Origin: Clavelina lepadiformis
Taxonomy: Eukaryota; Chordata; Ascidiacea; Aplousobranchia; Clavelinidae
NCBI RefSeq assembly: GCF_947623445.1
Contig: NC_135242.1
Coordinates: forward strand, 124,001-188,000
Direction of reading: 5' to 3'
Length of the DNA: 64,000 bases
Part shown: positions 33,557 through 52,316 of the stretch, in pieces
How positions within the stretch are numbered: position 1 is the stretch's first letter
Layout: every line of letters begins with the position of its first letter
Notes under the pieces: model-generated
The model's database searches: none
Told to the model about the DNA's origin: nothing
What the model saw: only the letters and a program-made list of their open reading frames with translations
Position numbers and translations under genes: made by a program

Positions 33557-33967
33557 CTCCTAAGTAGGCTTACCATAATGTTGTGGCTTCAAAGCGGGAC
33601 GCTTTCGACATATGACGTCACAATAAAATTTTTATCGAATACAATGAAATAAATAACAAACAAGAACACGAATTCTTCTTCAAATAATAATATAGAAAAA
33701 TAGGAAGGAATTGACGTTAACGATACAAAGAGGGCTGCCTCTATTTCACTGGAATAATCGTGCGTTCAAAGCGACATTTTACCGGTTCTTTTTAACCTAA
33801 CTTGAATGTTACAATGTAGTAAACTAATTACCTAAATCTACCTTTTAATGCAAATTTAACTTCAATTAAATCCTAAATAGCTAAAATCAAGTTTTTGCGT
33901 GTCTATTCTCCTAACCTAACGGCCTATCATTAACAAAAGGTTAGGGAGTTTTTTTCCGGTGAAGTAG

Positions 33968-34249
33968 TCACTCTGTAGAACTTACACCTTTTCGATACAG
34001 CAAAAGGAAGAAATATCGAATTGAACATAGTTTCCAAGTCGACATGCTACTCCTAGAAGATTTGTCTTTTTTGGTTTCCGAGTGTTTGTCAATATCTGAT
34101 CGTCCGCCATGACTAATTGAAAAAACAGACCCACAATAATTGCAGAGCGCTTTACCATCAACGCTTTCTTTCAAATATGGGTATTCTCTTTTTATCTCGT
34201 TTGTAAATGTACATTTTCTTTTGGGCATTGTAACTTTTAAATTTAGCAC
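33968..34249 (-). CDS. BED-type zinc finger ORF, N-terminus of a hAT-like transposase (truncated)
   Basis: The likely start is the internal Met of MPKRKCTFTNEIKREYPYLK. Next comes ALCNYCGSVFSISHGGRSDI with DKHSETKKDK, giving C-x2-C followed by an H about 18 residues later. In hAT transposases and their domesticated relatives this short BED-like finger is followed by a second His (KH), which here reads KD. It binds DNA near element ends. Only about 400 bp remain between this ORF and the left terminus at 33565, too little for a transposase core, so the catalytic part is missing or elsewhere. Confidence 0.5.
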   Translation of the reverse strand: MLNLKVTMPKRKCTFTNEIKREYPYLKESVDGKALCNYCGSVFSISHGGRSDIDKHSETKKDKSSRSSMSTWKLCSIRYFFLLLYRKGVSSTE

Positions 34250-34470
34250 TGCTATTTTTAGTCAAGTTACAGGTCTAAATCTAAATAAACAAGCAGGTAT
34301 AAGGTAAAGAAATATCACTTACCGGTACTATTATTTTCAGTGTAGGCCTAATTCAATGAAAATGGCTTCCGCAGAAAAGAAATGCAAACAGTTAAGGAAT
34401 AAGTCTATTCAATAACCTAGCGACTCAAGCCTACAGCCCTGCAAGCCTAATCTACTAAAAGAACACCCGC

Positions 34471-34601
34471 TTCGTCAAGGATTAGCCCATAGGAAAGGGA
34501 AAAAGGAATGCACGGATTACCCATTCGTATGGGCTAAAAAGAATATTTCCATCTTTCAAAGTAATTGTTGTAAGGCTAATCGTGTTGGAATGAGTAATCC
34601 A
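34471..34601 (+). repeat. Subterminal inverted repeat, left copy
   Basis: 131 bp starting TTCGTCAAGGATTAGCCCAT. The reverse complement is present at 49777-49907 with two substitutions. Looser similarity continues inward for about 100 bp (GGCTGGTCAT, TACGGT, GAGATCTATA). The low divergence means the two copies are young or have been kept alike by gene conversion. Confidence 0.85.
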
Positions 34602-36840
34602 TTTTATGGGAAACTATGGCTGGTCATTGTACGGTGAAGGCTACTGCTGTACATTATTGAGATCTATAGGCTGTTGTGTTGATACGAACTACAGCATAGT
34701 ACAGTGTGATTACTCGTTAGTTTAGCATATAGCATAGGTTTATCTGTGCAAATGGCATTGGTAATGCAGTTACAACCGTTGGAGTGACTTCAGTGCATCT
34801 ATAATAAATAGTGTTATCTCGCATAAGGTAGGGCGCTGACGCACTTCGGAATTGACAGCTTTAGGTGCATTTTCGCACTTAATAATGGGGACAGAAGCTG
34901 CCAACTCAATTATTGGGTCTAACAGTGAACAACCAAAGGACGAACACAAGATCTTGCTAGAAACGACTACAATTAGCAGTCCGGGACGTTGACAATCACT
35001 ACATGGCAATCATCATAGACGCAATATTTAACATTGTGACCCTTCTAGGCCTAGCCTAGTTGCAAACCTTCTAATATGTCGGTGCAGCACTGGACTACTG
35101 GTAAGTCTGTACTAAATGTCAGCACTAGATTATACCTATCTGTATACTTCTATGCCAAACTCTTCTATGGTTTGGGCAACTATCTCACCGGCTGCTAGCT
35201 ATCCATTGTGGAATGCGTGGCGACTACATCCTCAAGATTTTTGAAGACTGTGCTTGCTACACCCGAACGTTTCACATGTAGACATTACCTCTTGAAAACG
35301 GAGCCCACAGTTTCTGCATTTTGCCTACCAGACGGCAAAGTGCACCCAAATTTATTCATTCTGCACCCGGCCTTTCCATTACTGGCCATCTTGCAACCTT
35401 AATATCTTGTCGAAAAGTGCCATGATTTCCAGTCTGGCCTGATTCTGAATTCAGAAAAAGCTACTACAGTACATGCCCAGCCTGTTACGCTATTGGTATT
35501 TTTCTAGCCCACTTCGTTAGCCTGTGGCTGTTGAAGAAAACACTTCAAATGTAAATATGGTAAACGACAATTAGGCTAGTCTGTCAATAGAAAGGTATGT
35601 TTACTCAGTGTTTAACGATTACAGTTGAGTAGTTGTGAAGATAACCTTGCTCTGCTGTCTACTTGTCGGGTCGTCTTGACTTTAACAAACACAAATAATT
35701 GATATTCATTCCTCTTGATTGTATTATTTCTTAATCGGTTAAACATGTTGTTATATTACATCAACATTAGGTAGCATAATTTATCTTAAATTAGACTGAG
35801 TTTTTAGTAGAAATAAATAATGAAATAAACAAAAGGCTGTCACTAATTTGCCGGAAAACATCATGCGTTTGAAGCTATTTTTTACAGTTCCTTGTGAACC
35901 TAGCTTAAACATCATTCCATAATATACTGGTACGTGTTACTAACCTAAATCTTCCTTCCAGCAGGTTTAATGTAGCTTCAGTTAAACCTTAAATAACTAA
36001 AATCAACTTTTTTATAACCTTTCTTTTAATCTAGCCGCCTTTTTTAAACAACAGGCTGCATGATGTACTTATAGTGATATTGACTCTTTAAACAAAACGG
36101 TGATACAGCAAGAGTGGCATAAATATAAATGGTCAGTTGTTTTCTATTGTTTGTGAAATTGTCATTGTCTGTGGTAGCGGGACGAAAAAAACAATGCTAG
36201 TCAGTGTAGTGTTATAAAATAAAATAAATTTCCACCAGCAAACAATGAGAGGGAAATGGCAGCAAAGCCCAAGGGCTTAAAATGTGCAAGGATATTGCAA
36301 CCAAACAAAAAAGATGAATAAATGGTTAGTCTGGTCACTAATACCAGTAATACAGTATAAATAAACGCAATTATTAAAGTTTCATAAAATTCTTTTATGT
36401 TGGTTTCACTGCTGCTTTGGATTTTGCTATACCTCTACATCTCAGAGCTGCATTTTACTTCTTTAACATACTGGTTACAGCGGTAGAGAGAATAAACAAC
36501 TTCTATGGTACGGAATCACAACCTTTATCTTAGGATTGAGAAAAATCTTTGCACAGCTTGACTTGAGTCTTGATACTGACCTTGTCTTAGTCCAAGTTTC
36601 AACTTTTTTAATTGATTGTTTTATATTGTATTTCTCGAATTTGAAACTGTAGAATGAATTTGGAACAGCTAACTAGGATGGTAGCAAGCCGAGCCAGGTG
36701 ATTTAACTGCTACACCTTTGAGTTGGTATTTTGTGCATATTACAGCTAGTTTATAAGTAGCTGTTTGAAGATTAAGGTTTTCCTCACATCATACAGACTT
36801 TTATTACAGGCACAGGATTTTAAAGACTAGATTAGACATC

Positions 36841-39800
36841 ATGTATCAGCAGCCCCAGCGCCTGTGAGTTTTGTATAGTTCATACTCCAGTCCCTGTGTT
36901 CTCAATTGTAATGACATGAACTTTGTAAATATTTGCTGTTTATCGTAGTAGCAACTTAACTTAAATTGCTTAAATTTAACATAAAATGTCAGTATTCTAT
37001 CTAACTTCTTTATAGGCAGATTAAATTTTACCCTTTTTTATAATAGTTGTTGTAAATCAGCGGTTCTTTGGGATATTACCAATCTATGCAATTCTTTCAT
37101 GAACAGAAATTATATGCGCGAAAACGTTTTGTTGTTTATGAATATATTTTGTGGGCCACTTGCTAACCAGACCCAAAAAAATGTGTATAACTCCCACCTA
37201 ACTCGGCGATAGGAGCTTTCGAGTATTAAATATATTGTTGAGCTGTGTATACTTTGTGTTTGTGATATATTTCATATCAAATTGTCGTGGCAAGCAAGTC
37301 ACTGCAACGGTATCCAGGTAAAAAATAGACAGTATGGGATGCACCCCCAGCTTGCTTGTGCGAATCACTCGTAAATATGGGTAACTTATGTATACTTGAC
37401 CAAACGTTAATATAATCTTCAATGCTGTATTGTAAGTCATAAGTCACGGCACCTGTATCATAAATTTTTTGACATAGACAGATATTGAGACTGGGTATTC
37501 TCAACTTTTGTGCAATCGTATACAGTATATTTATATGTGCATTAGAAAGTATTCATGTTAGTTTGACTTCAGATATGGGTTTCACAGCTAATAGAAATTA
37601 CACAACAATATCTAAATGACTTGGTAGTGTGTCAATTTCAAATGACTATGTGCATGCTTTTACTTAACTCCTCACTACTTGCAGGTTTGAATTTATTGTT
37701 GTTATTATTAGACTAAAATATTTATAGCACAAGAATTTGCCTGTATGTTTACTGCAAATAGAAACTTGACCTACATGTCAAGGAATGGGAAAATTAAAAG
37801 GAGCAAGTACGTCTACTGTAAGATGTGGAAAGATGTACTTGGTTTCAAGTAGCCTACATCTTTTGGTTTGCTACTTACGTAGCATTGGTGATGACAAATG
37901 AAGTTAAGAACGGAACATATTGCATGTGTTTTGTCATTACTTACTGACATATTGCATATATTTTGTTGTGTTTCACCAGGCAATTATCAAAGTATCGTGA
38001 AGTAAATGAGAAGAAAATACCAAGGTTTGGAGAAACACTTATTTGTTTTTTACACTTTTTTTATGCAAAGTCTGTTTAAAAAGGATAGCTAATAAGATAG
38101 CAATAAATTAGTTGTCATACCAGTTTCAAGCCTTAATACCAATAATTCGCTAATCTTAATCAGGGTAGTCCTGTTATTTTTGCTACATGGGCCAGCAATA
38201 ATAGTGGTTACAATTTATTAATGATATATTTTGCATTGCATAGGCAACAACAAAAGCTAATTTTCGATATTGGATAAAAGGACCCAAAAAAGAACATGAC
38301 TGGTTTGCCTCTTTTGCAAAACATTTGGTCCATTGTTGAATGCCAATACAAACAGTCACAGAATTACATGAGGTTCTGTGGGAGTTAATATAACTGCTAC
38401 AAATCCTGAAATACCAAGCACTAGTAATGTTAACAGTTCTTGTGGAGGTGAATGAAAGTAATTACTAATTAGTAAAGAGATTTCCAATATATTTGACATT
38501 TCTATTCAATTTTTTTTACTGGAAATATTCACTTAACATTCACTTTGAATAATGAATATTGGTTTTCATTTTATCACAGGGTTGCAAGAAAACTTGAGTT
38601 ACGAAATCAGAGAATCGGTTTTCAGATTGGCGATCACTTAAAGAAAAGTTGTTTAAGTTTTCCATAACCCTTTAATCGCCTGAGCGACACCCTTGCTGTG
38701 TCTGCTTTAAAGAAGTTGTCAACATAATGTGTGGTGGAGATTGTGGGCCAAAAGTATGTTACTGTTGTCAGTGCAAGGATAACTGTCATTCTTTTGTTTG
38801 GTATCATTTGCCAGACATATGGATGGTAATTAGAAACAATTACATTTTTTTACTTCCACTAAAACTAGTATTACACTATTTACTGTATAGAAATATTAAA
38901 AATAGGTAGTCAATCTTAACAAACTGCGAATTTAACTAAACTTTCACAAATATTTGTATAATTATGTTCCTTGTTATTTATTTTCAGAAATGAGAGTGTA
39001 GCATTACACTTTAAACCTTGCAGGAAAATTAATACAACATCCGTTAAAAGCAATAGGTTTGCAACCAGAGTCGTGTTCTTCTGCTGAAATGGCATCCTTT
39101 TCTTGGGTAGAAGAATACTCACTAAAACTACAAGAATACTATTGGTTGAAGTGAGTTGACTAAATGTTTTCTGAATGTTTACATTTCTCAATACAAAGTT
39201 TTTGTTTATAAAATTTATGCTAGTTCCTGTTTGTAGATTGTATTGGCAAAACTGAAAGTTGCGAAACTGTTGAACGTACAAATTTAAGTACTAATGCCTT
39301 TAGGAATAGAAGTATAGAATTAGAATTATGTATAATTGTATATGTATATATAATATTGTTAATTTGTAGAGAAGAAGTTGAAGGTCTGAGAGAGGACACA
39401 GCGTCTGACATACTTTCTGGAAAAGTTGACCAAATTGCTAAGTGAGTTGAAGGACATATCAGTGTTAAATTAAATTACTACAATAGCTCTCCATGCCAAA
39501 ACCTAAACAAATATTGTAACGTCCCACTACTGCAATATGAGAAACCATTAAGAAAAGTTCCTGTGGTAAAGTTTAACTCACACATTGATGTTGGAAAGTA
39601 ACAAATGATACAATGCTTACATATTTATCAAGTGCCATGACGAAAAAAAGAACAGAAATTTTGGAGAATATTTATTAATTAAATATTGAAAATTTTTTTT
39701 TGTCTACTTTCATTCAAAAATACCCAGGTAGTTTGTGCATGCACTATGCATAGAGGTACGTTATACAGGTAGATAAAGCTACTGTTCTATTGTTTCTAAC

Positions 39801-40252
39801 TTAGAACATGATGATTTTTCAGCTGGTTAAACAATTGTTCAACGGTTAGTGCGAAGCATCAAGAAGATTAACAAAAACATTCATCATTGGATAACTGTGT
39901 ATAAAAAGTACCAGAATGTTCCACAAAGTGATATGAAAAGCATAACTTTTTAAATGGTTGTCGGGTCTGGGCCAGTTTAAAATCAATGCCTGTCAATAGT
40001 AAATAGACATAGTACCTATTCTTGCAGAAGGCTGTGAGGTTGTGAAACCATATGCGGTTACCCATCAGTTGCAAGCAGAGGTCGAACTTCTTTGTTTCAT
40101 AAAGGGCCCAGCACCCTTTCAAGCAAATGGACCTAACGAAGACTGAAGATGGTGGACGTGAATAACCAATACATTTCTCTGAGCTTCAAGAAATTTTAAC
40201 TGGATTTGGCTCGGAAAGCGAATGTTCAGATAACGAAGATGAAGATTAAACT
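36841..40252 (+). CDS. Candidate multi-exon gene inside the 16.7-kb segment (unrecognised)
   Basis: Exon-like blocks with GT-AG borders and some phase agreement: 36841-36863 (MYQQPQR), 37980-38024 (joining to LQLSKYREVNEKKIP), from 38580 (VARKLELRNQR), a Cys-rich block near 38727-38755 (MCGGDCGPK before a GTATGT donor), 39024-39150 (KLIQHPLKAIGLQPESCSS, then FSWVEEYSLKLQEYYWL) and 39370-39441 (EEVEGLREDTASDILSGKVD). 36841 to 37980 to 38580 and 39024 to 39370 join in phase. The joins across 38.6-39.0 kb and after 39441 do not resolve. An acidic open tail (GSESECSDNEDED then TAA at 40250) ends the region. I recognise no domain. It could be cargo or an accessory gene of the large element, or a host gene it interrupts. 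Confidence 0.3.
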
Positions 40253-41099
40253 AAGTAGTTTTAACCCATGCCAGTGAGCGAGTTACGCCACAAAATCACG
40301 TTTAAGTAGCTTGTTTCCATTTTTATACGCATTTTGGGTATTACACGTTCATCACATATACACTTGCCATATGTTTGTTTTGCCTCAGTAGCTTTTCTCA
40401 GGCAGTGATAGCTCCTATGAAATATTTCAAAGAAAGAGTATGATGATTGCAAAAATCGGCAATGCCCGTTGACCTAAAACGAGCAAAGACTTGAACCCTT
40501 TGTTTTGCTATAACGACGGCTACCCAACGCAGAAAGCGTTAACGGTAATACTGAACCAAATAATATTTATGCCGGAAAACATTTTTGAAAACTTAAAGAA
40601 CATGGTTATTGCACTTGCAGGAGTTGTTGATACGCACATGGATGGTTAAAATAAAACTCCGCTAAAAGAAACAGCATCCCAACGATTAAAACCCTTCTTC
40701 TGTGGCCATAACACGACGTCAGGCCTTTAGTTGCACAAAAAAACATGCCAATAAACAAAATTTTTTAAAAGATTGAACCTGTATTTAGGTTACTACTGCT
40801 TATGATCAACAAACTTCTCATTACTATACGTTTACTGGCCAAGGCAACAACGTTAAAAGTTTTTTAATTAAGTACAGGCTATAAGTTAAGGTTTACAATA
40901 AATCCCGTAGCTTTTCTTTAATGAATGACCAATGCACGATTCGGCTTAAAACAGTCCGCTCAAGAATGCAACTTGCAACATTGTTACGAGTCAATACTTA
41001 AACGATGTTGTACTCCCTTACAGCTACAACGATGGAAAATTTTTATTTCTGTGGCAAAATCTTCACCTAGTAAGTAACTAAAAAACTGTATTCGTCGTT

Positions 41100-42900
41100 G
41101 TGTGACCCAGCTGTTACTCAGCCCACCAAGCTAGATGTTGGGAAACGTGTGGAGTAACTACAGCGTTGTGTGGTGTCACTCAAACCCCGCAGATCATACC
41201 GAGTTTAGCGGATATGCCAAACACCGGTTAGCTAGGAGTTAAGTCGTACCCAGGCCATCCTGAGCAACAAAATCCGATTGTTTTGGACTGCGCGTCGGTA
41301 CTGAATTTGCCAAGTCTGGGCAGGGTTTTCCTGCCACTCCATGTTTTATTTATGGTTGGTCCAAGAAGCCGCTTTGGATTTTCGGCTTGTTCTCGTAACT
41401 GAATTTTGGTCGGTACCAACAGCTGTTTTGCTTTTAGTCGTCGGTATTGTATGTCTGCAAAGACAGAAAGCTTCGGGTGAAGCTGACGGGTTGGCTTTGT
41501 CGCCAGAAGAGCAAAGGAAAGAATGGCTTTATCGCGGTGAAACCCAGGAGGTTGGATGCCCGTAGCTTGTTAAACTGGCCGAACTGAACTGAACTGGCCG
41601 CAAGGAAGAGAATGTTCTCCAGTGGTGTGGGACCCAGAAATCCAGTACAATACGTTAAACGTCGTAGTGTGCAAAACACCGTTTATGACAATATGTATTT
41701 GGTGATTGTGCGATGTAATCCCTTACACATGCGCAGGAAGCTACTCAGCGATGGGGTATAGTAGAACCACAGCTGTTGTACGAAGAGTAACAGCCAAGTG
41801 ACCATGCATGAGGTCATCATTTCTCTTTTCAGGGGGACCCGGGATGTACGTTTCTTGCGTAGTGACTCAAGTTATCGGCAAAACGTGAGCGAACTGTTCG
41901 AGATTATTCCAAGATATTTGGGGTCTGGGCAGAAGAGCGCATAGATGTTTAAGGAGGACAAGGCTGCGGTGCCACATTGTATCATGGGCAGCTGTAAGTT
42001 GTAAAAGTACATCACCGGCCTTTTTCTTAGTCTTGAAGCTTTTCTCGATACCCTGGGTCATAAGAGTGATCTGTACTTCAGCCAGGGGGGAAGGAAGTCG
42101 ATTACGAGTAAAAAACGACTAAAAAAGACAATTTGTAGGCATAAAAATACTTACAATATTTCATATTAAAAGTTTAACAAACTTCTGTTTGCAGTTCATG
42201 TTTTTTTTGTCTTGGAAGTATCACTCGACTCAGCGTAGATCAAACGTTTGAGGACTTTCCAGAAAACTCGCAAAAGAGTTATGGGCGATAACTCTTTGGG
42301 TCCCCAAACGGTGCTTGAAGACTTGGGTCGCGACGACAAAAGCTCTTCTTCACATTTTTAAATTTTATGGTGCCGCAAGTAGATAGCCGAAAGCTACTTA
42401 ACCAATACTTCAAGGCAGGACCGGCATGGAACTCTGGGCAGATGTATTTTAGACCCGGAACATTGATTGGCTTTGTTTGATGGAGGACGGCAGGGAACTC
42501 ATTTGGGGAGAAATGACCAGAGATGTTTTCGCCATCAGATGTTTCTAACCTCCAAAGGTCAAACACTTCTTTTCCCACAAGTCTGGTCCTTCTTTTCCTG
42601 TATTCCGCATTTAGTCAGTTGTGTGGCGATCGTGTTGGATGAGAGAAGGGATGGACGAGGCAAGCGAACTGACCGGCCAGCGAGATTGTTTAAGACACTC
42701 CATTCCTTTCGGCTGCTGAACTGCGAGCAGTAGATAGTATTGAATTCGTAAAACCCTTCACTGCGCTAGCTTTTTTGTATTGAGTCTTTCCAAGAGCGAA
42801 GGGCTGCATTAGCGGTGTCTAGAGAGTCGTCAGGTAAGACGAAATTTGGTAAAGGGATGGGATGTGACTCATAACGAGGTTGATTGGTAATAATTGTTGA
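41100..42900. other. Compositionally distinct unassigned stretch
   Basis: This part of the large segment is visibly richer in G+C than its surroundings. It has open frames on both strands at 41228-41679 and 42279-42733, none with a domain I recognise. I found no matched terminal repeats around it. It may be a separate insertion. Confidence 0.3.
42121..42225 (+). repeat. ~104-bp direct repeat, copy 1 (partner at 44940-45043)
   Basis: AAAAAAGACAATTTGTAGGC through CTTGGAAGTATCAC recurs at 44940-45043 with only about three to four differences. On the minus strand the block contains a GTAAGT donor-like site after a short open stretch, so it may be a copied exon-intron border of the minus-strand candidate gene. 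Confidence 0.8.
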
Positions 42901-44401
42901 AGCGATACAATAAATAATTACAATAGGTTGTAAGTCCTGCCAAGGTTTCCCTTCTGATACACCGTTTTATAAAAGAAACCATTTATTTTCAGGAAATTTT
43001 CTTTTGATCAATCTTATCTACAATAATTGGCAAACCCAGAAACAAGGTCTTAAAATGTGTTTTATTGATTTTGTTTTACCATGTAAACCTGAAAGAGGGC
43101 CAAAATGTTATACAATAAAAAGGCTATACTATTGTAAACGCATGTTGAACGTTAGTAAACAGTATTTTAAGTTCCGACGTGATATTGTTGGAGACATTTA
43201 CGTAAAACTGGAAATTTATGGCCTTGTAGCGATTGAGCTCACCTACCACTTCGCTAATATCACCCGAAAAGATGTCGTCCACCCATATGATAAGAGCTTT
43301 GGATTATATTGCATAGAACTTGCGTTGGTGGTTCCTTTTTAAAGTGGTGCCGGCAAGCGAGTCGTTTAAGCTTTACACTTCAAAAATCCGAAGCAGATGT
43401 TAATAATAGAGCGGAAACTTGCACGCGGACGATAACAAACAAGGTAAGGGTACAGCAAATTAACAGCTATGCCATCCGGCAACAACAAATTTATACTTTT
43501 ACAGCAATTTCTTATACAAGGGGGTACACAGTTGTCGATGTTTAGACCAGATAAGACAGTTGATGATCCGAAAACAAATTTCTTTCTGATTTAAACTTAA
43601 CAATTTTCTTACTATTTCGTGGTTGTCATGCGGTGGGTATGCTAAAAAGGGGCGAGTAAAATTTTGAAGTTAACATCACGATTTTCTGTTATTAATGTGG
43701 TGACATCAAATTTGGCATGCGACCAACTTAACAAAGAAACCGTTTATCTTGTTTCGTCCATTTGTATTCGTATCGCAAAAGTGCGGCCTACATATCAAAG
43801 TTTTGCAGATATTGTAACTGCTTTTTAGTGTAAGTGTCAACCAACCAATTTAAAAAGGAATAATTTCACCAAGAAAATATGCCTTAATAGAAAATTACCT
43901 TACCAATTTAAAGCAGTGAGTCATTATCACTAAAAATGCTTTGATTCAGCAGAGTATATTCCACGAAAGCACCGTCAAAAAGTGTAAAGCAAAAGAACGA
44001 AAATACTGAAGACGATAAAATAAAAAAACAACAAACAATTACATATGCATCCAATATAGCTACAATTAATCAATGTTAACTTCTTAAAATTACGAAAATG
44101 CGGACATGAATGAAGGATGAAATCTTAAAATGGAATGATTGCAGCTTAAGTTAACAACAAAATACTGTAAAAGGCGCACAGAACAAATGAAACCGTAGAA
44201 ATATGGAAAAACAACGACCAGTAACTTTTCGCTCACCAATGCGTGTGTGATAATTGCATACCGTACAGTAGATTACCACAATAGATTGGCTTGATGAAAT
44301 CATTGCACCGTCGTATGATAACGTAAAAATAACAAACATTACAAAAATAAGGCTGGTAAATGATGTAATGTTTGATTAAAACACTGAATCATTTACAGAT
44401 T

Positions 44402-47400
44402 TCCAATCTACTGATCAATGTGTTGGTCTATCACCTCAGGAAAGTTCAAATTTTCTTCATTTTCACAATCATCAGTTATCATCAAAAGAACTAGATCTTT
44501 ATCTGCCAGTTCTAAATTGCTATAAAGAGTATAACAGAAAAAGCACAGTGTAAAAATTGTAAATTGTAATCTCTTTATCAATGCAAAGATTACAGAAATC
44601 ACATCACTTACCCCCTTTTCAGAATCATAGTATTTTTTTGCTCATCAATACTTTTCTGGCAATCAACTGGACCACAGCTGCAGAGATTTTGAAATGGTAT
44701 TCCACAAGGCATTCCAGTGATATTGAACTTGTTAATTTTAGCATATGTCAATGGGATTTGTGCATTGTCTCACCTGAAAAGCACCAGATCAAAAATACCA
44801 AGGTATGCACAAAAACAACTTAATGTAATTAAGATGAAACAATTTCCATCAATTCTATTTTATTTACCACATACATTCCATTGCTTGCAACAATAGGCAA
44901 CACTAACAAAAACATTTCTCATTTTACACCGTTACGCTAAAAAAAGACAATCTGTAGGCATAAAAATACTTACAATATTTCATATTAAAAGTTTAACAAA
45001 CTTCTGTTTGCAGTTCATGGTTTTTTTGTCTTGGAAGCATCACCAGCTGAATACAAATATACAGAAAACATTACTTCTAACAAGAAATTTTTCATACTTC
45101 ATGATTAACATGCTTAATTACAAAAGTTTACAAGAAAAGTACTACGAAAGTTCATTATAATATATGCTTGCAGTATAGGTTAGTTAATCATGTTCTAGCA
45201 AATGTTTAGAAATGACACAGTTAATTACATAAAATTACCTTTTCAGCACTGTAAAACCTCTATAAAGCCACTTAGATCAGTTTGCTCCAAGAAATATGCC
45301 CTTACATCCCTGTTTCAAAATGCATGGAATGTACCATTAACAAATGCCATTCCACTAACGGCCGCACCAGTTTCTTCAAGTTCATCACACTAAAACAAAA
45401 ACAAGTTTCCTATGTTTGGTGTACACTGTACAGCACGGGTACAACATAGTATGGTATACACAGCAACCTACAGCTTGAGTTATCGGAGCAATGGCATTCT
45501 TTCGAATTTTGTTTTTCATGTTTTCATCCAATTTACTTAGTGGCATACAACTTTCAGCATTAAAGATATTTGCTTTGTTATTTCCATAGTTGTTTTCTTT
45601 GGTTTGGAAGTTCTTTCCACTTGCAGGCAGAGTTTGAAATCTTGAAATACAACAATCAAACATTACTACACAACATTTGAAAGCTTAATAAAAAAACTAA
45701 ACATAAATTGAAACTGAGAAACACCGACAACTAGCAAGACATTACTTTATACAAAGCACCTGGATAACTTGTCTAAATAGTACTTTCACTGTTCAGCTGT
45801 GAACATAGTGAAACCTTCATTTATGTATATTAGCAAATTGCAAAGTAATTTAAGCCTCTCAAGCTTTAACAGTGTCAATCAGTATCTTTGGCTTTGTAAC
45901 AAACAATGAACATAACAGTAAAACACAGTTTTGGAAATTTATTACACACATATCATGTGAAGTCACAAACAGCATTCACTTCAAGTCATGTATACTAATC
46001 CAACTTACACTGTGACATAAATTTCACAATCAAACCTAGAAAATAAAATTTCGACATGCAAGTTTAGTAATGAGCACAGTTAGCATGAAATCAATGCATG
46101 CAACTTACCAGGTGAAAAATGATGTGAAGTTATATTGAGTGAGAACTTCGATTGTGTCTTTGACGGCATAATGCCAATGATTCATTGAAGCAAGCAATCA
46201 ATTAAGCAAAACAGCCAGAATATCAGACCTTGTACATATCTTACATGAAATACAAGTGATGTTGTGTACAAACTTCTTCCTTGAAAATTTTTGAAAAAAT
46301 CATGCAACTGCATAAAAACTACCAATTTTCAGTTCCTGAATAGAAGAAAAAAATAAATTGTAGCCTGCGAGTGTTCTTTTTCGAAAAGGATTAACGCTTT
46401 GGATCTTTGGTTATATTTCTGCATTGTAATTGTAAATCCAACGTTAAAACACAATGGTTGTCAAAACGCTAGTAAACAAATAGCAATAGTTATAACTAGT
46501 GGCATTTAACACTCCCTCAAACAAGAAATCTAAAAAAGGACAAATTTTAATAATTTTGTAAGATCATGTAATAAACATGCAATTACAAAATACTTAAAGT
46601 TGGAGAGTTGTCCTGGACAACAAATGGTGCCTTCCTGTCCTTTGTAAAGTCAGTAATTCAAAGTTAGCATTTAAAAAACGGACTAAAATTGACGAGGTAG
46701 TTGGATATTCCAAAATAATTCGAAGAATATGCAAAACAGATAACCAGAAAGTCAAGACAGGCTTCAGAATTTCATGCTCCCAACTAGGGTAAAATTGGCA
46801 CAAGAAAGCTTAGTAAAAGTAACATGTGAAAAAATGTTTTCAAGTTAAACAACTTCATGCATTATAAATTTACTTCCAACATTCGGCGATAGCGAACTTT
46901 CACAAGGTGCATCTGATGGAAGAATTCAGCAGGCAAACAATGCTTGGTGGTAGATAATGTTGATTTCCAAATAATTTTGATTTAAGAACTTACAATACGA
47001 AATCAAATCAAAATACATTGAAAATTCTTCTTTACCCCTAGAAAATAATTACTACCATCAAAAAAAAACTCTTTGCAGAAACCAATAAAACTTTCTTTTG
47101 TCTTAACACATTCAATAGAAGTAAATTTTGCTGAGAGCAGCATCTTAAATTGATCAGCACTACAATTCTCGTATGGCAATTTCTGCCACAGCGTGTGCCT
47201 ACTTATTCTGACTGCCGGTTGGTCACAATGTTTCGTTTTCTCTCTTTGAATTATTTTCTCCTTGTCCCGCTTGATGCTACTACTAACAACATGATCTGCA
47301 AATCAACAAGAACGTTCCAGCTATAAGAACTACACAGTATCGCTTAGTGGCTTGCTTACCATAAAAGGTCTACAAGTATATCGCCATTCTTCCTGTGACT

Positions 47401-48420
47401 TCCTGAGTAGGCGCAAACAATGTAAGCACAGCAAGATATATATGTTAAGCGAGTCTGGTTTCCCCAGCACAGACCTTGCGTCAGTGTCAAATACATGCCC
47501 AAGATACTTGACTGTGGCAATGACAGCAGCTTTGCCAATACACTTGTTGTTCTTAACGACAAGAGGTAAATTGCCCATCACAGTTGAGCCAAGTGGTCAG
47601 TGAACTCAAGTGATGACGATCGACTAAACACATAAAGTAGTCTAAATACTACTATGCGGTGTACAACCTAGCGGTCGTGTACTCGGCCAAAAATTGGGAA
47701 ACATTGAGCTGGCCCTTGGTCAAGACATGATCACTTAGCCATGGTGTATTTCCAAAATTGGACAATAAAGCTCAACAATGAGTGTTAGCATCCATTTACC
47801 CTAACACCAAGGTAGCAAAAAGTGAGCTTAAAGCTAACATCAACAGCTCACCTTGCAGGAAATTTACATCTTTGGTCACCTCAAGTGAAAAAATGACTAA
47901 TGGGCATGGGGCACCAAATCGACACTGTTATAGTAAACAGCATCCTGTGACTGGATGTAGAGCTATAGGACCCCACAGCATGACAATTTTTCTGTTTTTG
48001 TGAGCATTGAACCTGCTGGGCTTCAGTGCGATAGAGTCACTCCTTACCTTGCACATTATTCAGCGGAGCCACTCTGATTGCTCCTCCCGAAACTATTTGC
48101 CTCAGCAAAAAAGCAAGCCGGATAAATAAAATCAAGATACCCATTGCTCACTGGCTCTACACTGCTAAGGATGGCGTGGGTGCAACTTAATTGCCTGCTG
48201 TCTGAAGATGGTTGTTTCTGCTCAACCCTGTAAAAATAGGGAATGGCAAACATTGTAACTTGTGAACGTAGCGCAAAGGAGATTGCAAAATAAAGATTAC
48301 AATATATCCAGCTATTGTATCCCCACGTTCCCCATGGAATACATAGTCATCAATTTTTGGATTGCAGCAAGACCCAGTTGTTACTTGACTCAAGCTCAAA
48401 CATCTAGCTTGTGTTGCCAA
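44402..48420 (-). CDS. Candidate minus-strand multi-exon gene inside the 16.7-kb segment (unrecognised)
   Basis: The best exon is 47036-47295: about 86 open codons between a TTTGCAG acceptor and a GTAAAG donor, including SRHTLWQKLPYENCSADQFK and FIGFCKEFFFDGSNYFLG. Others are 47360-47590 (open, ends before GTAAGC), 45424-45655 (GKNFQTKENNYGNNKANIFN and KLDENMKNKIRKNAIAPITQ), 45335-45400 (CDELEETGAAVSGMAFVNG) and a last one ending in NLNFPEVIDQHIDQ with TAG near 44410. Phases are not all consistent, so the model is incomplete. I recognise no domain. Codon patterns look protein-like, and the gene faces the plus-strand candidate convergently. Confidence 0.3.
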
Positions 48421-49776
48421 ATAACATCTTGCTCACAGGAAGCAGGCTGATGGTAAAACAGGGATATTTTGACACAGGACGTTGATTTTCTAGAGGCCGT
48501 TTATTATCATTTTTAATTTGTAATAATCTGCAAACTCATGAATGCATATAATCGACAAATAGCACTCTTTGAGAACGATTGAAACCTTCGTTTGTCGAAA
48601 GTCAAGACAAATTAAATGATTGCCTTTTGCTTATGATCTGCATATCAGATGGATTTCCTTTTTGGAATACTAGAATGTTAAGTTGCTCTTTCACTCCACT
48701 CAGGATTTCGAAGTTCTCTGACAATCATACAAGATCACTGTACTCTGCAAGCTCGTTATGTAAGAAAGCAGCAATGTTGAGTAGTAGCCGAATGGTTAGA
48801 GCTGGCAATTAGGCAGTGTTCACTACCCAGTAGCACTACCATTGTTACGCCCTTGGGGTATTACCAATGCTTGCTCCAGTTCAGTGCTTCTGATAAACAT
48901 ACCTAAATCATTCAGAACTTGCTTAAAAGCTAGCCAGATAAGTGGGGCTGGAGCAATTAAAGATTACCACAAAGGTTAATGGAAGCGAACTAAATTGACA
49001 TATGAAGTTCTAGATACTTCTATCCTATAGCCGCCAAATAAAGAAAATCATGTCGATTGCTGTGAAACACTTCGACCTTATGCCACACTGGGACTCTGGA
49101 TAAATACAGTGGGTGAGTTAGAACTGCACGGACAAAGACCTTCCATAACATGTTCAGCAGTGTATGCCGCGTGTATATAATTGATGCAATCACTCCAGCT
49201 TGAAGGCAAAACTATTTCAACCTGATGCTGAACAAAAGCACCATGCAATTACCACAATTCAATTTAATACAGTGCATGAGCACTGCAAACACGAAAAAGT
49301 GACTTTTGGCTACTAGAGTACCGGTCTATCGTTGGCTGGATTGCCAGTTCAAACACCATTGTGCATTGCACTATGTGCAACAATTAAGCAGTCTTTAGAA
49401 CTTGCTTGGATTCTACATTCAGTAAGTAAGCATACAGCTATTCCAGTGCCTAGAAGCCCGAGGTAGATAACCTATATCTTGTCTACGAAACAGGACCAAT
49501 TAAGCAGCGTTAATGCCAGACACACCAAACGCATGAAAGAACTGAAATCGAAAACTAGGCTATTTTGTTCATTTCAGCCTTTTCAGATTTTTAGTGAGAT
49601 CCGTTTATAGTTTGTGCAAGGCATTCCAACGTTCATCAATCACTATACAAACCTTATCCATACATACCGGTATAGATCTCAGTAGTCTACACCAGTAGCC
49701 TAAGCCATCCAATCGTACCGTACGATGACCAGCCACAGCAGTTCGACTGGATTACTTATTCAACCCACCGCTCGGT

Positions 49777-49907
49777 TGGATTACTCATTCCAACACGATT
49801 AGCCTTACAACAATTACTTTAAAAGATGGAAATATTCTTTTCAGCCCATACGAATGGGTAATCCGTGCATTCCTTTTTCCCTTTCCTATGGGCTAATCCT
49901 TGACGAA
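49777..49907 (-). repeat. Subterminal inverted repeat, right copy
   Basis: Reverse complement of 34471-34601 with two differences in 131 bp. It lies about 375 bp inside the right end of the large segment, against about 900 bp for the left copy, so the two termini are not simple mirror images. Confidence 0.85.
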
Positions 49908-50329
49908 TGGGGTGAAAAGAACACCGTATATTTCTACAAGCTACCACAGCATTAGCTGAACTAGCTAACAATGAAACCATTAGCCAAAGTAACAAGCTGT
50001 ACCAATTATCGGCTAACAATGACGTCACAATAACATTTTTATTGCATACAATGAAATAAATAACAAACAAGATCACGAATTCTTCTTCAAGAAGAAACGG
50101 TACGCTACACAGCAAAAACAATAATAAAAACATGCTAATGTTCGTGTATGGCTTCTATGCGGTATGCCTATGCTGGCTGACTGAGTGCCAAATCGGGACG
50201 TTTGGCTAATAAATCGGGACGCCGGGACAAGACGTTAAAAAGGTGGACTGTCCCGGCTAAAGCGGGACGTATGGTAAGCCTACTCCTAAGTGCAATCAGC
50301 AAGATGTTGTTGTTAGCTATAGACTAGAG

Positions 50330-51264: not shown

Positions 51265-51495
51265 GACAGCCTGTTGTCCTGTTGTTAAAGATAGGCGGTT
51301 AGGTTAGGAGAATTGGTAATATCAATTTGGTATGCAAAAAGTTGATTTTAGTTATTTTAGGTTTTATTGGCGTTAAATTAAGATTAAAAGGTAGATTTAG
51401 GTTAAGTTTAGGTTACTCGGCCTATGTTATAACATTTAAGTTAGGATAACAAGAAACTGAAAAATAGCTTCAAACGCACGATTTTCTCCAACAGT
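51265..51495 (-). repeat. Dispersed repeat family R1 (four copies)
   Basis: On the minus strand the segment contains CGTTTGAAGCTATTTTTCAG, AACCTAAATCTACCTTTTAA, then AAATAACTAAAATCAACTTT and CTCCTAACCTAACCGCC. The same blocks in the same order occur on the plus strand at about 33740-33945, 35830-36062 and, more diverged, 55510-55680. Length is about 200-230 bp. It is non-coding. Ends and target duplications are not clear, so the class is unknown. Confidence 0.6.
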
Positions 51496-52316
51496 GGCGG
51501 CCTTTTGATAATTTTTGGAAAAGATATTTCGCCAATGCAATGATGAATTGTCGGCTCGGTGGTACAATATAATTAGCGGTTAGGTCATGGAATTCAATTT
51601 TTTGGTAGCCTAATATCGGGTATAGTAAGTGCAGTTGAGTCCAAAAAATCCAAAATTCTTGCGTAGTGCAAAGCAGCGACCCGCACCTTCGATGCACACG
51701 TGGGTAGAGGTCAAGAGAGCAACTTTACGCCGTGTCGTATTATAGAATATTCTGGCCTGTGTTGAGCGTGATTGAGAATTATGAAAGCTAATAAGTTACG
51801 AAATCGTTGTTTAATATTTAAACTTTTGTTTAAACTTGTTCACTGTGCATTACAAGCTTTTAATTACTTGTTTATTTGTTATTATTCTCAATTAATAATT
51901 GTGGTCTTAAACTGGTAATTTTAATAGCATTCAACACATGAACCAACCAATTAGAATTTAGTAGATAATGTTTTTCCATCTCTGCAAAGTTAGGTATTCG
52001 TTAGCCAGTAACAAAACGTCTAAATGAGCTTAAACCACTTTGCGTAATTGTATAGTATACCACATATCTAGAGAATTGGTGTATGATAAATTTTGCCGAT
52101 AGTGTGAAATTGTTTAAACAAAAAGGGTTTTGTCGTGAGATATTTTTGCTTACAAGTTTTGTTTTTTTGTTGTACAAATATTCGTCCACGTTCTAGCCCT
52201 AGTCAACATTACTGATCGTCTTTTTCTGATTGTGATTAGTTACGTTTGATTTTTTGTATTTTCTGCTTTGTGAATAGAATGTATGTAAGTATTTATAATA
52301 ACTAACATGAAAGTTC

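What the first reader, a model, noticed from the sequence alone, without database searches (positions are those of the whole stretch)
33557..50290. Two hAT-type ends with one shared 8-bp target duplication, 16.7 kb apart
CTCCTAAG directly abuts TAGGCTTACCATA on the left and its reverse complement on the right. An 8-bp match at exactly the right place is unlikely by chance (about 1 in 65,000 for a fixed position). hAT elements rarely exceed about 6 kb, yet this span holds two candidate spliced genes, near-identical subterminal inverted repeats and a BED-finger ORF. It could be a giant cargo-carrying hAT, a composite of two related elements that moved as a unit, or a normal element swollen by later insertions.
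Basis: partly seen in the sequence, partly recalled or inferred. Interest (0 to 1): 0.82.

Follow-up and report, generated by a model that had tools for sequence, protein, structure and literature searches.

The report
Giant transposon nested in small hAT
The 16.7-kb span in this sea-squirt genome is not a giant hAT transposon but an ordinary 1.26-kb hAT relic into which a 15.45-kb transposon of another superfamily (KDZ) jumped recently.

Summary
In detail: CTCCTAAG + TAGGCTTACCATA at 33557-33577, and the inverted end + CTCCTAAG at 50270-50290. It is not a giant hAT. The "subterminal inverted repeats" (34464-34601, 49777-49914) are the 138-bp terminal repeats of a second transposon, X, 34464-49914 (15,451 bp), flanked by its own 7-bp duplication, AAAAGAA. 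Three other hAT copies carry that insertion site unbroken; one is a complete 1,219-bp element with its own 8-bp duplication. Three more 15.4-kb copies of X sit at other sites and are 99.7-100% identical where compared. Nine of eleven 20-22.5 kb elements with the same ends carry a KDZ (Kyakuja-Dileera-Zisupton) transposase core; X has lost it by internal deletion. Of 16 family members with both ends read, 15 have a perfect 7-bp duplication. The genome is Clavelina lepadiformis. Giant KDZ elements are already reported from algae. This is a new chordate member, whose 20-kb relatives also carry an opposite-strand gene with a GTF2I-like repeat.

The parts
33557..33564 (.). left 8-bp target duplication of the hAT (CTCCTAAG)
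33565..34463 (+). left 899 bp of the hAT element, starting with terminal repeat TAGGCTTACCATA
   Evidence: 98% to the C2 hAT copy over query 9-907
33968..34261 (-). BED-finger-like ORF, probable N-terminal remnant of a hAT transposase (97 aa)
   Evidence: PF02892 E 0.0098, 16.3 bits, below the cut-off of 20.6; a longer paralogue (L076, C5) carries PF05699 Dimer_Tnp_hAT, E 3.1e-8
33612..33683 (+). first copy of a 72-bp direct repeat inside the hAT
   Evidence: both copies also present in L076 and L077
34457..34463 (.). left 7-bp target duplication of element X (AAAAGAA), within the hAT
34464..49914 (+). element X: 15,451-bp non-autonomous KDZ-type DNA transposon nested in the hAT
34464..34601 (+). 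left 138-bp terminal inverted repeat of X (CACCCGCTTCGTCAAGG...)
   Evidence: 134 of 138 positions match the right repeat
38243..38825 (+). remnant of the N-terminal part of the KDZ transposase gene
   Evidence: tblastn of annotated protein P0002, residues 3-70 and 81-154, 59-70% identity
38833..38950 (+). place where the 20-kb relative holds about 3.8 kb instead (L045 6932-3151), including the part of the KDZ core found by Pfam
   Evidence: alignment; KDZ match C8:4652874-4653011 lies in that stretch
39020..40243 (+). remnant of the C-terminal part of the KDZ transposase gene
   Evidence: tblastn of P0001, residues 417-460, 502-600, 634-687 and 700-739, 62-84% identity
44414..45660 (-). decayed second gene of X (GTF2I-like-repeat accessory gene in the 20-kb relatives); the aligned stretches contain in-frame stops
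   Evidence: tblastn of P0035-P0039; PF02946 in P0037 and P0038 above cut-off
49777..49914 (-). right 138-bp terminal inverted repeat of X
49915..49921 (.). right 7-bp target duplication of X (AAAAGAA)
49922..50282 (+). right 361 bp of the hAT, ending with TATGGTAAGCCTA
50019..50090 (+). second copy of the hAT's 72-bp direct repeat
50283..50290 (.). right 8-bp target duplication of the hAT (CTCCTAAG)

Best explanation
Two successive, ordinary cut-and-paste insertions. First, a small internally deleted (non-autonomous) hAT element of about 1.26 kb inserted at CTCCTAAG and made the 8-bp duplication. Later, a 15.45-kb element X inserted at AAAAGAA inside that hAT and made a 7-bp duplication. X is a non-autonomous derivative of a KDZ-superfamily transposon. 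It keeps 138-bp terminal repeats nearly identical to those of 20-22.5 kb relatives, most of which encode a KDZ transposase core, but it has lost that core and its second gene is broken. X was most likely moved in trans by a KDZ transposase made by such a relative. The nesting, both duplications, the missing core and the recent spread of X are shown here; mobilisation in trans and the order of events are inferred.
For: (1) X has its own termini and a perfect 7-bp duplication, as do 15 of the 16 family members with both ends read. (2) The 16-base insertion site occurs four times in the genome: at the window's occupied copy and, unbroken, in hAT copies at C2:16040704, C3:2681080 and C5:10153671 (the reversed control pattern gave 1 match). 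The C2 and C5 copies were aligned across the site; for C3 only the right hAT part was matched, and the site abuts it. The C2 copy is a complete 1,219-bp hAT with its own duplication TATTGAAC. (3) The other three 15.4-kb copies (C8:13626732, C8:13924202, C1:28109657) have different flanking sequence; identity to X is 99.94% over the full length of the first, 100% over 3,979 bp of the second and 99.7% over 3,985 bp of the third. (4) Nine of eleven 20-22.5 kb elements with the same ends hold a PF18758 match and 0 of 4 15.4-kb copies do (ends paired by hand). (5) An exon-joined peptide from 20-kb elements hits KDZ at 2.9e-35, CxC2 at 6.1e-9 and CxC1 at 2e-6. (6) P0001, whose KDZ domain is residues 166-373, matches the window only from residue 417 on.
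Against: One of the four 15.4-kb copies (C8:13626732) shows no 7-bp duplication; a run of N (assembly gap or withheld) ends 28 bp outside its left end, so its flank may be unreliable. Two of eleven 20-22.5 kb elements (C3:9226027, C3:15130929) gave no KDZ match. X is only 71-87% identical to the sequenced 20-kb copy over most of its interior, so its direct autonomous parent may be another subfamily not identified here. A single locus cannot by itself exclude that the hAT moved once after X had entered it.
Confidence: 0.96

Rival explanations
1. A giant hAT: the hAT transposase mobilised the whole 16.7 kb, X included, as one unit with 8-bp duplications.
For: The outer ends and 8-bp duplication are intact, so in principle the unit could be mobile.
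Against: No second hAT-X junction was found: of four genome matches to the 16-base site, one is the window and three are hAT copies without X. The three other 15.4-kb copies have different flanks, two of the three with their own perfect 7-bp duplications. Paired hAT ends seen here are about 0.3-1.6 kb apart (a part of the family).
Confidence: 0.03
2. A composite of two separate hAT elements flanking trapped DNA that moved together.
For: Two hAT ends with a 72-bp direct repeat near each end.
Against: The two parts join into a single 1,260-bp element that aligns end to end with a 1,219-bp copy (94% with gaps). The direct repeat occurs twice in the single copies L076 and L077 too, so it is part of the hAT itself.
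Confidence: 0.01
3. X is not a KDZ element but an element of another superfamily with 7-bp duplications (such as P or Dada) that happens to hold KDZ fragments.
For: The window copy itself has no KDZ core; 6-7 bp duplications are given for Dada (PMC3706591, passages).
Against: Elements with the same ends carry the KDZ core in a gene collinear with its remnant in X; no other transposase was found in the parts scanned, which were not every frame of the element.
Confidence: 0.03

Closest known systems
KDZ (Kyakuja-Dileera-Zisupton) DNA transposons: giant members in Ectocarpus (up to 30.3 kb) and Chlamydomonas (31.7 kb), KDZ1-3 of Cryptococcus neoformans (about 9.2-11 kb), Zisupton of fish and of the nematode Pristionchus
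   Same: PF18758 core with CxC1/CxC2 cysteine clusters in the 20-kb relatives, a gene of many short exons, large size, long terminal repeats. Giant size, nested insertions inside giant elements and additional genes are reported for Ectocarpus (PMC12477816, passages); terminal repeats of 139-241 bp for Cryptococcus (PMC12810828, passages); many-exon animal members for Pristionchus (PMC9297572, passages).
   Different: A tunicate host; 7-bp duplications, where 8 bp is given for Zisupton and KDZ1 and 4-8 bp for KDZ2/3; X itself lacks the core; an opposite-strand gene with a GTF2I-like repeat in the 20-kb relatives, for which two full-text searches (GTF2I with Zisupton, GTF2I with transposon and KDZ) listed no paper.
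Kyakuja of Laccaria bicolor (Kyakuja-1_LB, -2_LB)
   Same: 7-bp duplications and 5'-CA..TG-3' termini (PMC12730594, section 3.2.1).
   Different: Kyakuja-1/2_LB are described as having no terminal inverted repeats; X has 138 bp. A TET/JBP gene was not searched for here.
hAT superfamily, small non-autonomous elements
   Same: Short terminal repeat, 8-bp duplication, a weak BED-like N-terminus and, in a paralogue, the hAT dimerisation domain.
   Different: Nothing unusual except the nested insertion.

Membership tests
hAT (outer element) | 8-bp target duplication | tested here: met
   window, and 16 of 16 complete copies examined, a part of the family
hAT (outer element) | short terminal inverted repeats | tested here: met
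   TAGGCTTACCATA at both ends
hAT (outer element) | hAT transposase with dimerisation domain in the family | tested here: met
   PF05699, E 3.1e-8, 33.7 bits against cut-off 21.4, in paralogue L076; the window copy has only a sub-threshold BED match
KDZ superfamily (element X and relatives) | KDZ transposase domain in the larger members | tested here: met
   9 of 11 paired 20-22.5 kb elements; exon-joined peptide E 2.9e-35
KDZ superfamily (element X and relatives) | KDZ transposase domain in the window copy itself | tested here: not met
   no match in C3:158464-173914; P0001 residues 1-416, which include the KDZ domain 166-373, have no match in the window. X is therefore described as a non-autonomous derivative
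KDZ superfamily (element X and relatives) | CxC cysteine cluster upstream of the core | tested here: met
   CxC2 6.1e-9 and CxC1 2e-6, both above cut-off, in the 20-kb peptide
KDZ superfamily (element X and relatives) | defined termini and a fixed-length target duplication | tested here: met
   15 of 16 members with both ends read have a perfect 7-bp duplication
Kyakuja branch | 7-bp duplication and CA..TG termini | tested here: met
   the feature from PMC12730594
Kyakuja branch | no terminal inverted repeats, as described for Kyakuja-1/2_LB | tested here: not met
   138-bp terminal repeats
Kyakuja branch | transposase groups with Kyakuja in a tree | not tested

The most novel reading that the evidence does not exclude
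Clavelina lepadiformis hosts a currently mobile family of giant (20-22.5 kb) KDZ transposons that carry, besides the transposase, an opposite-strand gene for a GTF2I-like-repeat DNA-binding helper, and that also move unusually large (15.4 kb) non-autonomous derivatives in trans: a live giant cut-and-paste system in a chordate.
Probability: 0.5. Interest if true: 0.45.

Novelty: new member of a known kind. Interest (0 to 1): 0.27.

Why it matters
It removes a supposed giant hAT and replaces it with a well-bounded example of a giant KDZ element in a tunicate. Copies identical over 3.9 kb on three chromosomes suggest that the family moved very recently, so it could serve as a chordate system for studying KDZ transposition; the papers whose passages were seen here deal with fungi, algae and a nematode.

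Tried and rejected
Giant hAT and two-hAT composite: rejected. Maverick/Polinton: considered from the size and terminal repeats (recalled); set aside because the duplications are 7 bp and the larger relatives carry a KDZ transposase; no search for Polinton genes was made. The 72-bp direct repeat as evidence for two elements: rejected because single copies have it. A codon-position scan of X against the 20-kb copy, read by eye, gave no clear reading-frame signal. A protein search with the C-terminal 209-aa ORF found nothing at E <= 0.001 among 55 candidates. Pfam scans of some of X's own longer ORFs gave only sub-threshold matches. A reverse-transcriptase-like fragment at 41231-42614 (-) is a resemblance recalled from memory; Pfam gave no match for the pieces tried.

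Full report
Observation. The window holds CTCCTAAG-TAGGCTTACCATA at 33557-33577 and TATGGTAAGCCTA-CTCCTAAG at 50270-50290. The 13-mer is a real family end: 366 genome matches against 1 for the reversed control. In one search I took 16 complete hAT copies with both exact ends from the loci fetched, a part of the 366 end matches. All 16 have a perfect 8-bp duplication. 14 of them share one sequence or its reverse complement, so they show only three distinct duplication sequences.

What lies inside. The repeat finder showed 138-nt inverted arms at 34464-34601 and 49777-49914. A genome search with the whole span found part of the right-hand third (within 46694-49915) in 20 other places, with only the best candidates scored. 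In the nine of these fetched, the match ends at CACCC with different flanking DNA each time. A search with a 24-base end pattern, up to one mismatch, gave 91 ends. I paired inward-facing ends by hand. One class is 15.4 kb (four copies including the window's). Another is 20.1-22.5 kb (eleven elements; one end of the longest was taken). Several are short, from about 240 bp to 2.4 kb. Other ends had no partner within the pattern's limits.

Target duplications. I read both ends of 16 family members. Fifteen have a perfect 7-bp duplication, including the window copy (AAAAGAA). The exception, C8:13626732, has a run of N ending 28 bp outside its left end. A seventeenth element was read at one end only and could not be tested.

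Empty sites. If X is a later insertion, the hAT without X should carry the site once. The 16-base site CTACTAAAAGAACACC occurs four times in the genome: at the window's left junction, and at C2:16040704, C3:2681080 and C5:10153671 (the reversed control pattern occurs once). hAT matches lie there in both and for C5, for C2, and only (right part, 87%) for C3. The C2 and C5 copies align across the joined flanks; the script's join was one base off on each side, which explains the 2-base gap in those alignments. The C2 copy is a complete 1,219-bp hAT with duplication TATTGAAC. The window hAT without X is 899 + 361 = 1,260 bp.

hAT identity. The window copy keeps only a weak BED-finger-like ORF. A longer paralogue on C5 has the hAT dimerisation domain PF05699 at 3.1e-8, so the family is hAT and the window copy is a deletion derivative.

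X is recent. Identity to the window X is 99.94% over the full C8:13626732 copy, 100% over the first 3,979 bp of C8:13924202 and 99.7% over the first 3,985 bp of C1:28109657; only those parts of the last two were fetched. Nine copies of the right-hand part (seven of them in paired 20-21 kb elements, two without a partner end found) were compared over up to 3.9 kb. Four (L006-L009, on C4, C4, C2 and C1) are 100% identical; the lowest pairwise identity is 97.3%.

X is KDZ-related. A search of the genome with Pfam KDZ (PF18758) gave 31 matches. Nine of the eleven paired 20-22.5 kb elements contain one; C3:9226027 and C3:15130929 gave none; none of the four 15.4-kb copies contains one. An exon-joined peptide from 20-kb elements scores 2.9e-35 for KDZ and passes the cut-offs for CxC2 and CxC1. 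A protein search with it returned 34 proteins: annotated ones of Clavelina lepadiformis and relatives in lancelets, molluscs, cnidarians, a ribbon worm and fish, and one without a name. Against the window, P0002 matches at residues 3-154 and again from 454, and P0001 only from residue 417; the KDZ domain of P0001 is at residues 166-373. The 20-kb copy has about 3.8 kb at that point where the window has about 0.1 kb. X is therefore an internally deleted, non-autonomous KDZ element. It is not simply a deletion of the sequenced 20-kb copy: most of its interior is 71-87% identical to it, while the terminal 0.8 kb is 98% identical, so X appears to belong to a sister subfamily.

Second gene. On the strand opposite the transposase, the 20-kb copy encodes stretches of annotated proteins P0035-P0039. 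Two of the five (P0037, P0038) pass the Pfam cut-off for a GTF2I-like repeat, two are below it and one has none. In X the aligned stretches of this gene contain in-frame stops. Two full-text searches joining GTF2I with Zisupton, and with transposon and KDZ, listed no paper in the held library. What the protein does is unknown; DNA binding is an inference from the repeat's name.

Host. Contig lengths 25,070,715 and 19,509,797 equal the N50 and N90 printed for the Clavelina lepadiformis assembly (PMC10884593, passages), and the closest annotated proteins are from that species. The held copy differs slightly from the printed one (209.06 Mb in 95 contigs against 210.09 Mb in 102 scaffolds; longest 28,783,666 against 28,789,166), as another version would.

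Mechanism. Shown: the two nested duplications, the unbroken paralogous sites, the lost transposase core and the near-identical dispersed copies. Inferred: the hAT entered first, X entered later, and X was mobilised by a transposase supplied by a relative that shares its ends.

Relation to known systems. Giant KDZ transposons are known: up to 30.3 kb in Ectocarpus, with an active 31.7-kb element cited for Chlamydomonas (PMC12477816, passages); elements of about 9.2-11 kb with 139-241-bp terminal repeats in Cryptococcus (PMC12810828, passages); Zisupton in fish and in Pristionchus, where terminal repeats but no target duplications were detected (PMC9297572, passages). Kyakuja of Laccaria makes 7-bp duplications and has CA..TG ends but no terminal repeats, while Zisupton is given 8 bp (PMC12730594, passages and section 3.2.1). 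X shares the 7 bp and CA..TG but has 138-bp repeats, so I file it as KDZ without naming a branch. A search for Zisupton with ascidian listed no paper. A search for Clavelina lepadiformis with genome terms held 10 papers, 8 listed; I saw passages of one, PMC10884593, which does not contain words beginning with 'transpos'.

Verdict. The finding is explained by nested insertion. It is ordinary as a hAT and moderately interesting as a fresh giant KDZ element in a chordate.

Noticed in passing
G000 C1:1453456-3656236 (L012-L040): 14 hAT copies on C1 (12 of them 741 bp) share one 8-bp duplication or its reverse complement, and several lie about 27.2 kb apart (for example 3225109, 3252289; 3308818, 3335991; 3338179, 3365404, 3392668), which points to a duplicated segment of about 27 kb.
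   Followed up: partly
20-kb element, L044 4818-7541 (+): Opposite-strand accessory gene with a GTF2I-like repeat (PF02946) in a giant KDZ element of Clavelina.
   Followed up: partly
window 41231-42614 (-): Fragment that resembles a non-LTR retrotransposon reverse transcriptase (from memory; no Pfam match); similar frames are seen in the 20-kb copy, so perhaps an old insertion inherited by both subfamilies.
   Followed up: partly
window 35823-36055 and 51278-51514: A 68% similar stretch inside X and, inverted, outside it; part of the X stretch also resembles the hAT left end (67% over 180 bp), so X may carry an older hAT fragment.
   Followed up: partly
window 42121-42224 and 44940-45043: 104-bp direct repeat (97%) inside X, 2.8 kb apart.
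   Followed up: no
G000 C3:1048640-1053108 (L002 and nearby): Rearranged fragment 95% identical to parts of window 39331-42000, with an inverted piece of about 550 bp at 87%; a broken relative of X about 0.9 Mb from the window locus.
   Followed up: no
G000 C5:1886834-1887391 and similar places: Short elements of about 560 bp with the X ends (the one read has a 7-bp duplication, AATATTT), probably miniature derivatives of the KDZ family.
   Followed up: partly
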